Source: Lentinus brumalis (lineage: Eukaryota > Basidiomycota > Agaricomycetes > Polyporales > Polyporaceae). From it: 64,000 bases of DNA. The stretch is taken from positions 620,001-684,000 of the forward strand of contig MARA01000011.1 in NCBI GenBank assembly GCA_001792895.1, given 5' to 3'. This document shows positions 39,574 to 42,004 of this stretch, one piece after another; the stretch's first letter is position 1, and the number at the start of each line of letters is the position of its first letter. The notes under the pieces were generated by a model. The model did not search any database and had not been told where the DNA came from. It saw only the letters and a program-made list of their open reading frames with translations. The position numbers were made by a program, and so were the translations under genes.

Positions 39574-40633
39574 GGTTTGGCTAGCGCGTGGACAGCGAAG
39601 TATTCAGCACGATAGACGAGCGTGCGTGACGCCAGAGAAAGGAGAGCTGGGTGAGAGCGTCAGCCTCAATGTTATAGAGAGGGTGAACGGTTATAAAGTG
39701 CTCACGGTGACCTGTGATTGATGAGAGCGCAGAGCGAGGGCGGAACGGCCTGGGTGACTCGGGAAGAGGCCTCGGTGGAGACTTTATACTGGAAGGCCGG
39801 GGTGTTAAGGAATGTTGGTATGCCGCAAGGGTGAGGCTTGTTACGACATTGAACAGGCCGTCCGGTTTGGATGGACATTCCCTCGAGCCAGCCACCTCGG
39901 CTAACCATTGGGATGCGGCCTGCATTCCCGCCGCTTACCATATGCGGCATGCGACTTGAGGGCGCGTTCGGTTCAAGGCGCGTTCACACCGCGCCCTGCG
40001 ATCCCCTGCGAGACCCGAGGAGATAGTCTCGATTCGCAGAGTGATGAGCTCGCTGCTGAGAGCGGCGGCGTCGGCCTGTGGGGAGAGCATACGATCAGCC
40101 AGCCAGTTTCGGTCGTGATTGACACTGGGAGCTAGCGTACCAGCATGTCAAAAAATTGTGAGCGCAGCCAGGGCGCACCGCCGGGCTGTTCAGTGGTCGT
40201 TCATTGGCCACAGGCAAAGACAGGCTGAGGCAGCGTTCGCTGCCGAGAGATGGGAGTGAGGTTAACTCGCCCAAGTCCGCGCTAGCCGCATGGGCGTCAA
40301 ACGGAAGCGGCGGAAGCGTGCAGGAACATGGGCAGCGTGCGGGGAAAGTGGCTGAATCTCCGTCCGCTGCGAGTGGGTATGGCGCCCGGAGAGTCGAGGA
40401 GGACATCGTACCTGGCTGCGTCGTACCATCTCCGCGTCGTTCGAGGCGGATGTCCGTGGAATGGCGCGGAGGACCGTGTTTGCACCGGCCAAACACGCTC
40501 CCCTTAGCCGCCGCTACCGCCAATATTTTGGGGCACCGCGTCTTGTCCCGTCCTGCTCCTCCTCCCCTCCCCTTCTCCCTCTCCGCCCTCGCGCCCCCCC
40601 TCGTCCCCTCACGACCCCCGCACACTCTCCGCC
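39574..40633. other. Divergent promoter region of F-box and YHM2 genes
   Basis: About 1.06 kb. ORFs on both strands are short and lack motifs. The 120 bp before the YHM2 start are strongly pyrimidine-rich (40550-40630), as is common before highly expressed fungal genes. No TATA box recognised. Confidence 0.45.
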
Positions 40634-42004
40634 ATGGCAATCACGAAGGAACCCGGCCAGAAGGGCGTCAACTGGTCCAACATCGCTGTCGGTGAGTGCG
40701 ACGCGTCGACGCGTATGAGCTGGCGCACGTGAATGCCGACCTTGACTTCCAGGTGGTATCATGAACATGGTATGCCTCTCTACATAGTGTGGATGAATCC
40801 AGGATGCTGAACGACGCGTGATGGGTCGTTATTGGGACGTGTAGTTCGTGAGTAGACTGCGAACTCATCACACTCGCGGCGTTACTGATTGTATCCCCGC
40901 AGGAGGCGAGTCTGCGTGTTGCCCGACGTGCTGGAGACAAGTCGGCTCACTATGGAGACACAGGTCACGACTCTTGGACAACCGCTTGAGGTTCTCAAGA
41001 CGCAGATGGCTGCCAACCGTCAACAGACCATGTTGCAGGCTATCAAGACCGTCTGGAGTCGCGGTGGTATCGCAGGGTTCTACCAAGGTCTCATTCCATG
41101 GGTATGTACCGCGCATATATCCCTCAAGTCCGCCCCTCACATCCTTGCCAGGCATGGATTGAGGCATCAACGAAGGGCGCCGTCCTCCTCTTCACCGCTT
41201 CCGAGATCGAGACTGCTGCGACAGGATGGGGTGTCAATCCCGCAGCCGCTGGTCTGCTCGGTGGTATGGGAGGCGGCGTTGCCCAAGCCTACGCCACTAT
41301 GGGTGAGTGGGACATCCTCTCCCCGCTGCGCTCGTTACTGATACACAAATGCGTGCAGGTTTCTGCACATGTATGAAGACGGCGGAGATTACCCGGCATA
41401 AACAGGCGGCGAGCGGCATCAAGCCCCCATCGACATGGGCTGTCTTTGCTGACATCTACCGTCGGGAAGGTATCGCTGGTATCAACAAGGGTGTGAACGC
41501 TGTCGCCGTCCGGCAATGTACGAACTGGGGTTCCCGGTGAGTGACGTCGTGCCCCCAGCCTCGGCCGAGGAGACTCATTGGGGTCGGCGATGACAGCATG
41601 GGCTTCGCGCGGTTAGCGGAGAGCAGCATCCGGTCATGGAGAGGCAAGGGCGAGGACGAGAAGCTCACCCCATTCGAGAAGATCCTGTCGTCGACGATCG
41701 GCGGTGCGCTCGCGACCTGGAATCAACCGATTGAGGTCGTCCGCGTCGAGATGCAGTCTATGGCAAAGGGCGCGGAGCGCGGGGAGAAGAAAACGATCCT
41801 CAACACACTCACGTACGTCTACAAGGAGAACGGCATCAAGGGTCTCTACCGCGGTGTCACCCCCCGGATAGGTCTCGGCATCTGGCAAACAGTATGCATG
41901 GTCTCGTTCGCGGACTACGTCAAAGCTTGGTGCGTCTCATCTTTGACCTCCTGCGCTGGACACCCGAACTGACGCGATGATTTTGTAGGGTCAAGGGAGA
42001 ATAA
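40634..42004 (+). CDS. YHM2: Mitochondrial carrier YHM2 (citrate/2-oxoglutarate type) with two 3-nt microexons
   Basis: Nine exons give 298 residues: 40634-40691, 40753-40769, 40845-40847, 40903-40905, 40964-41101, 41152-41302, 41359-41536, 41597-41929 and 41989-42004. The carrier signature [10 protein letters not shown] (PxExxK) is in repeat 1, [14 protein letters not shown] is the Yhm2-specific repeat-2 variant, and [13 protein letters not shown] is in repeat 3. [16 protein letters not shown] also matches this subfamily. Yeast Yhm2 exports citrate for 2-oxoglutarate across the inner mitochondrial membrane. Joining exon 2 directly to exon 5 keeps the frame but deletes the conserved Phe-Glu of the motif FEVTTLGQP. 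The sequence offers a TTC flanked by tag and gtgagt, and a GAG flanked by cgcag and gcgagt, which exactly supply F and E. Gene identity is firm; the microexons need RNA support. Confidence 0.9.

What the first reader, a model, noticed from the sequence alone, without database searches (positions are those of the whole stretch)
40770..40963. Two candidate 3-nt exons in the YHM2 carrier gene
Seen: splicing exon 2 (ending MNM) directly to exon 5 (starting VTTLGQP) keeps the frame but loses Phe-Glu. Between them lie tag|TTC|gtgagt at 40845-40847 and cgcag|GAG|gcgagt at 40903-40905, each in phase 0, which exactly supply F and E. Known: the FEVTTLGQP block is highly conserved in Yhm2-type carriers. 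Inferred: two one-codon exons, the second with a GC donor. These would be among the smallest exons possible and invisible to ordinary gene finders.
Basis: partly seen in the sequence, partly recalled or inferred. Interest (0 to 1): 0.78.

Follow-up and report, generated by a model that had tools for sequence, protein, structure and literature searches.

The report
Two back-to-back one-codon exons
In a mushroom-type fungus, the gene for a mitochondrial carrier almost certainly contains two consecutive exons of just three letters each, each supplying one amino acid that many published gene models of its relatives lack or replace.

Summary
Spliced, the gene (40634-42004, + strand, 9 exons of 58, 17, 3, 3, 138, 151, 178, 333 and 16 nt) encodes a 298-aa YHM2-type carrier. 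Among GT/GC..AG paths with introns of 20-200 nt, exactly one joins exon 2 to exon 5 and spells MNM-FE-VTT: two single-codon exons, TTC (40845-40847) and GAG (40903-40905); no GT-only path does. Only 21 of 20,000 interior shuffles allow any such path. Relatives give the strongest support: F-E is present in 82 of 82 listed relatives without an NCBI name (mostly cDNA-sized contigs) but in 25 of 81 NCBI genome models; 36 of 81 lack both residues, 5 have E alone, 15 carry other residues. F and E are the two extreme outliers among 190 conserved columns. The tiny-exon problem therefore probably extends over much of the Agaricomycetes, although no relative's genomic DNA could be read. Microexons, including codon-sized ones in a truffle and a 1-nt exon in Fusarium, are known: this is a new, unusually tight member of a known kind. 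Open: cDNA from this species, and whether the skip form deposited for Somion occarium is real.

The parts
40634..42004 (+). coding span of the YHM2-type mitochondrial carrier gene, start codon to stop codon (897 nt spliced, 298 aa)
   Evidence: spliced translation; three PF00153 stretches; best named relatives are mitochondrial carriers and YHM2 proteins
40634..40691 (+). exon 1 (58 nt)
   Evidence: homologue alignment
40753..40769 (+). exon 2 (17 nt), itself a microexon, ends ...MNM
40770..40844 (+). intron 2 (75 nt, GTATGC...GTGTAG), the longest of the gene; no CTNAY branch-like site, only CTGAA starting 38 nt from its end
40845..40847 (+). exon 3, 3 nt, TTC = Phe26
   Evidence: only path spelling FE; F in 82 of 82 relatives without an NCBI name
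40848..40902 (+). intron 3 (55 nt, GTGAGT...CCGCAG; CTGAT branch-like site near the acceptor)
40903..40905 (+). exon 4, 3 nt, GAG = Glu27
   Evidence: only path spelling FE; E in 82 of 82 relatives without an NCBI name
40906..40963 (+). intron 4 (58 nt, GC donor GCGAGT...ACACAG; CTCAC branch-like site near the acceptor)
40964..41101 (+). exon 5 (138 nt), starts [10 protein letters not shown]
41152..41302 (+). exon 6 (151 nt)
41359..41536 (+). exon 7 (178 nt)
41597..41929 (+). exon 8 (333 nt)
41989..42004 (+). exon 9 (16 nt coding, with stop TAA)

Best explanation
The YHM2 carrier gene of this Polyporales-like fungus has two consecutive constitutive exons of one codon each (Phe26, Glu27), separated and flanked by ordinary short introns of 75, 55 and 58 nt, the last with a GC donor. 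Each intron is probably recognised as a unit (intron definition, usual for short fungal introns; recalled), and because the donor and acceptor machineries can hardly sit together on 3 nt (general knowledge), the introns are probably removed one after another: joining ATG to TTC leaves the intact donor gtgagt of the next intron, and joining TTC to GAG leaves gcgagt for the last. The product carries the F-E pair near the end of what the low-confidence model shows as the first helix. Shown: the unique path, its low chance, and F-E in relatives' transcript-like sequences. Inferred: actual splicing here, its constitutive nature and its order.
For: Unique path; 21 of 20,000 shuffles. F-E in 82 of 82 listed relatives without an NCBI name; 70 of the 82 have their longest contig shorter than the 1,371-nt genomic coding span, median 1,108 nt, as expected of cDNA. 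Genome-derived models depart most at these two columns: the consensus residue is kept in 38% and 42% of them against 100% in the other group; the next worst of 190 conserved columns is 78% against 96%. Donors, acceptors and lengths resemble the gene's other introns (50-61 nt; donors GTGAGT, GTATGT, GTGCGT). The gene is found once in the 53.4-Mb genome.
Against: No RNA of this species was available. Exon 4 depends on a GC donor, and no GT-only solution exists. Intron 2 lacks a CTNAY site (so does the uncontroversial intron 1). 36 of 81 deposited models of relatives lack both residues, and one species has both forms deposited. The Pfam score barely changes without FE (108.9 against 108.6 bits), so that profile does not demand it. 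Relatives' genomic DNA could not be examined (searches confirmed none).
Confidence: 0.93

Rival explanations
1. Both one-codon exons are real but form an optional cassette: some transcripts join 40769 to 40964 and make a carrier without Phe-Glu, perhaps under regulation.
For: Both exons are three nt long and in phase 0, so skipping keeps the frame. Somion occarium has two deposited models identical in every residue except F-E (P0012, P0030). 34 of 81 genome models have exactly the MNM/L-V junction.
Against: 0 of 82 listed relatives without an NCBI name lack F-E, although the database is clustered at 90% identity and may hide minor forms. Among the deviating models 15 carry odd residues or inserts (FQ, FV, FK, VQ, LE and others), which points to prediction error. 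The skip intron would be 194 nt against 50-75 nt for the gene's other introns.
Confidence: 0.12
2. This species has truly lost Phe-Glu: one 194-nt intron 40770-40963 is spliced and the two 3-nt matches are chance.
For: The skip path is canonical GT-AG and in frame.
Against: Chance of an FE path is about 0.1%; F-E in 82 of 82 listed relatives without an NCBI name; 194 nt would be more than twice the longest other intron of the gene.
Confidence: 0.03
3. F-E (or one of the two) comes from another exon with non-canonical splice sites, or an assembly error hides a simpler structure.
For: The GC donor is unusual; assembly reads could not be checked.
Against: Allowing AT donors and AC acceptors adds no path. 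The sites found resemble the gene's other sites and intron sizes.
Confidence: 0.03

Closest known systems
Microexons of Phanerochaete chrysosporium P450 genes (PMC1184071, passages seen)
   Same: Basidiomycete, of the Polyporales (recalled), the order presumed here; very short exons among frequent 45-55-bp introns
   Different: Shortest exon reported there is 6 bp (2 aa); no pair of single-codon exons in the passages seen
Codon-sized microexons of nank genes in Tuber melanosporum (Iotti et al. 2012, not seen; cited in PMC4986451 and PMC3689799, passages)
   Same: Exons of about one codon in a filamentous fungus
   Different: Described there as tens of alternatively spliced exons that diversify a NACHT-ankyrin family; here two exons in a metabolic carrier, apparently constitutive
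One-nucleotide exon of CYP621A in Fusarium (PMC12940212, passages)
   Same: Ultra-small exon needed to keep a conserved motif, inferred from an alignment and then confirmed by reads
   Different: 1 nt, single, ascomycete, P450; confirmed by reads, which is lacking here
Conserved, misannotated small microexons of plants (PMC8831610, abstract and passages)
   Same: Evolutionarily retained tiny exons that public annotations miss
   Different: Plants; found with RNA-seq; one rice transcript has adjacent 5-nt and 12-nt microexons, not two of 3 nt
3-bp exons of animals, e.g. Drosophila hth and troponin T, rodent NCAM (PMC7392893, abstract and introduction)
   Same: Single-codon exons
   Different: Animal genes; the hth and NCAM exons are alternatively spliced

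Membership tests
Microexon (exon of about 30 nt or less) | length of about 3-30 nt bounded by valid splice sites | tested here: met
   3 nt each; AG before, GT or GC after
Microexon (exon of about 30 nt or less) | included in mature mRNA | not testable with these tools
   no RNA of this species; indirect: F-E in 82 of 82 listed relatives without an NCBI name
Microexon (exon of about 30 nt or less) | structure conserved in relatives' genes (not strictly defining) | tested here: inconclusive
   56 of 81 genome models do not read F-E at exactly these columns; no relative's DNA confirmed
YHM2-type mitochondrial carrier | three Mito_carr repeats (PF00153) | tested here: met
   3 stretches, 108.9 bits against a cut-off of 22.3
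YHM2-type mitochondrial carrier | full-length close relatives named YHM2 | tested here: met
   87-91% identity over 99-100% of the query for the seven best hits; of these, Irpex rosettiformis and Steccherinum ochraceum (90%) are named YHM2
YHM2-type mitochondrial carrier | exchange of citrate for oxoglutarate | not testable with these tools
   described for yeast Yhm2 (PMC10855732, passages)
GC-AG intron | GC donor with otherwise good donor consensus, and AG acceptor | tested here: met
   GAG|GCGAGT...ACACAG|GTC, 58 nt; use in vivo not tested

The most novel reading that the evidence does not exclude
A pair of single-codon exons, old within the Agaricomycetes, that the spliceosome must include by strict one-after-another splicing, and whose joint in-frame skipping acts as a built-in switch that removes two residues from transmembrane helix 1 of the citrate/oxoglutarate carrier and so lowers its activity.
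Probability: 0.08. Interest if true: 0.8.

Novelty: new member of a known kind. Interest (0 to 1): 0.55.

Why it matters
Two adjacent one-codon exons are close to the limit of what a spliceosome can define and would give a clean natural test of sequential splicing of neighbouring introns. Practically, 56 of 81 listed genome models of this conserved carrier from mushroom-forming fungi and relatives do not read F-E at exactly these two residues, probably for the most part by error, so one easily fixed feature seems to corrupt many annotations; the same comparison of transcript-like against genome-derived proteins could find further missed microexons.

Tried and rejected
Rejected: a single 6-nt exon, split-codon solutions, GT-only solutions and solutions with AT donors and AC acceptors: none exists. 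Not supported: introns inserted as repeated elements; the 194-nt stretch matches the genome only at its own place, and a repeat search of 40620-41110 shows only pairs of 11-13 nt. The DNA search skips common words, so this is weak.

Led nowhere: scans of viral and prokaryote contigs for relatives' DNA (20 and 13 pattern matches, 0 confirmed). A 3-bp 'exon 2' of Ganoderma gpd proved to be 3 bp of a longer exon. In PMC3990503 and PMC4014442 the one 'microexon' is a setting of a read aligner (passages). A GAPDH search in the own genome, meant as a control, gave one match and was not followed up. A sequence search of solved structures gave only four distant carriers (E from 1.6e-8 to 5e-4). AlphaFold models of the Somion pair with and without FE had low confidence (mean pLDDT 66.2 and 63.7, 33 sequences each); F26-E27 lie in helix 14-31 of the first, and confidence over residues 11-30 is lower without FE (49 and 53 against 58 and 67), but I draw no conclusion.

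Caveats on counts: my pattern missed 3 rows that do hold FE; one search recounts all 82. The 163 proteins are all those listed in the three searches (best 120 each, of 2462, 2372 and 2379 hits; only the 7997 candidates sharing most words were scored). They are cluster representatives. The division into 81 and 82 is by whether the source column holds 'ncbi', as I read it; that jgi, lgn and ena rows are read assemblies, many of them of RNA, is my inference from labels and contig sizes; 12 of the 82 lie on contigs longer than 1,371 nt. P0036 and P0091, which bear both kinds of label, were counted with the genome models (both have FE). Several species appear more than once (Schizophyllum commune three times, Somion twice). 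Fisher's p of 2e-24 ignores relatedness. The 'strong site' pattern (0 of 20,000 shuffles) was written after seeing the sites and is not independent.

Full report
What is there. The stretch lies in a gene on the + strand whose spliced product is a complete 298-residue carrier: exons 40634-40691, 40753-40769, 40845-40847, 40903-40905, 40964-41101, 41152-41302, 41359-41536, 41597-41929 and 41989-42004, 897 nt with the stop codon. The protein has three Mito_carr stretches (108.9 bits, cut-off 22.3), and its closest named relatives are mitochondrial carriers of Cubamyces and Earliella (91%) and proteins named YHM2 of Irpex and Steccherinum (90%). The window is therefore from an agaricomycete, most likely one of the Polyporales (inference). 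In the own 53.4-Mb genome the protein matches only this gene, exon by exon, and the 194-nt stretch only its own place. Yeast Yhm2 is described as a citrate/alpha-ketoglutarate carrier with a role in cytosolic NADPH supply (PMC10855732, passages).

The observation. I enumerated the ways to splice from exon 2 into exon 5 so that the product reads GIMNM-FE-VTT, with any codon split, any number of exons, synonymous codons, introns of 20-200 nt, GT or GC donors and AG acceptors. There is one way, the proposed one; without GC donors there is none; AT donors and AC acceptors add none. Twelve paths (introns of at least 45 nt) give a product of the right length and one of them spells FE. When the 182 interior bases are shuffled with dinucleotides kept, 21 of 20,000 shuffles allow a GT/GC..AG path to FE.

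The sites. Intron lengths of 75, 55 and 58 nt compare with 61, 50, 56, 60 and 59 nt for the gene's other introns. Donors are GTATGC, GTGAGT and GCGAGT; the other five are GTGAGT (three), GTATGT and GTGCGT. Introns 3 and 4 each have a CTNAY branch-like site near the acceptor; intron 2 has only CTGAA, and the uncontroversial intron 1 likewise lacks CTNAY. Exon 2, at 17 nt, is a microexon too, so three small exons follow each other.

Relatives. No relative's genomic DNA was confirmed in the collections open to me, so I compared proteins by origin. Three searches listed 163 different proteins. Of these, 82 come only from jgi, lgn or ena; for 70 of the 82 the longest contig is shorter than the 1,371-nt genomic coding span, median 1,108 nt, as assembled mRNA would be; that they are cDNA is inference. 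All 82 of 82 read F-E at this place. The other 81 carry NCBI names and lie on contigs of 32 kb or more, thus are models made from genomes: 25 of 81 read F-E, 36 lack both residues (34 of them with exactly the MNM/L-V junction), 5 have E alone (four Schizophyllum, one Pleurotus), and 15 have other residues or inserts (FQ three times, IE twice, FV, VE, FK, LE, VQ, ID and others). As a control within the same proteins, of 190 columns conserved at 95% or more in the first group, F and E have by far the largest deficit in genome models (0.62 and 0.58; next 0.19, 0.11, 0.10; median 0). The simplest reading is that many Agaricomycetes share exons here too small for gene finders. Deviating models include Cantharellales (Botryobasidium), Auriculariales (Auricularia), Hymenochaetales (Fomitiporia), Boletales (Serpula) and Gloeophyllales (Neolentinus) (orders), which suggests an old feature; the models of Calocera and Dacryopinax (Dacrymycetes, recalled) and Phaffia (Tremellomycetes, recalled) show FE. 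Whether each relative has one or two tiny exons is unknown; the models with E alone hint that it varies.

Against this, or unexplained. Somion occarium has two deposited models that differ in nothing but F-E. They may be real isoforms or two predictions. Both exons can be skipped in frame, so a skip form is possible; none appears among the 82, but clustering at 90% identity can hide minor forms. The Pfam score hardly changes without FE (108.9 against 108.6). Structure models of the Somion pair were of low confidence and settle nothing.

How it probably works. With intron definition the three introns can be removed in turn: joining ATG to TTC leaves the donor gtgagt intact next to the new exon end, and joining TTC to GAG leaves gcgagt. 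Simultaneous recognition of both ends of a 3-nt exon is sterically unlikely (general knowledge), so ordered removal is the most likely mechanism; it is not shown here.

Known or new. Searches of the paper library (all ten allowed) listed no paper that I recognised as describing this YHM2 structure; I saw listings and the passages named, and most subscription papers are not held. The kind is known: P. chrysosporium P450 genes have exons down to 6 bp (PMC1184071, passages), a truffle gene family has codon-sized microexons (cited in PMC4986451 and PMC3689799, passages), Fusarium CYP621A has a 1-nt exon (PMC12940212, passages), animals have 3-bp exons (PMC7392893, abstract and introduction), and plants show pervasive misannotation of conserved microexons (PMC8831610, passages). 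One paper on Trichoderma states that functional microexons had not been described in filamentous fungi before (PMC11121469, passages). What seems new is two adjacent single-codon exons in a metabolic carrier gene, with signs of conservation across the Agaricomycetes and measurable damage to public annotation.

Noticed in passing
40753-40769: Exon 2 of the same gene is only 17 nt, so three consecutive exons (17, 3, 3 nt) are microexons, all within the first 27 codons.
   Followed up: partly
proteins P0012 and P0030 (Somion occarium): Two deposited models identical except for presence or absence of Phe-Glu: a possible natural skip isoform.
   Followed up: partly
proteins P0087, P0094, P0095, P0105, P0161: Models of Schizophyllum (four) and Pleurotus (one) keep E but lack F, hinting that the E-V intron may be absent there and only one one-codon exon remains.
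   Followed up: no
proteins P0152 (Sphagnurus) and P0163 (Moniliophthora): Models carry 27 or 11 residues in place of the two, as if intron letters had been read as exon.
   Followed up: no
window 42354 onward, + strand: A likely next gene starts about 350 nt downstream with ATGAGCGCAGCAGCACCC; by recall it resembles an Mpv17/PMP22-type membrane protein; no search was made.
   Followed up: no
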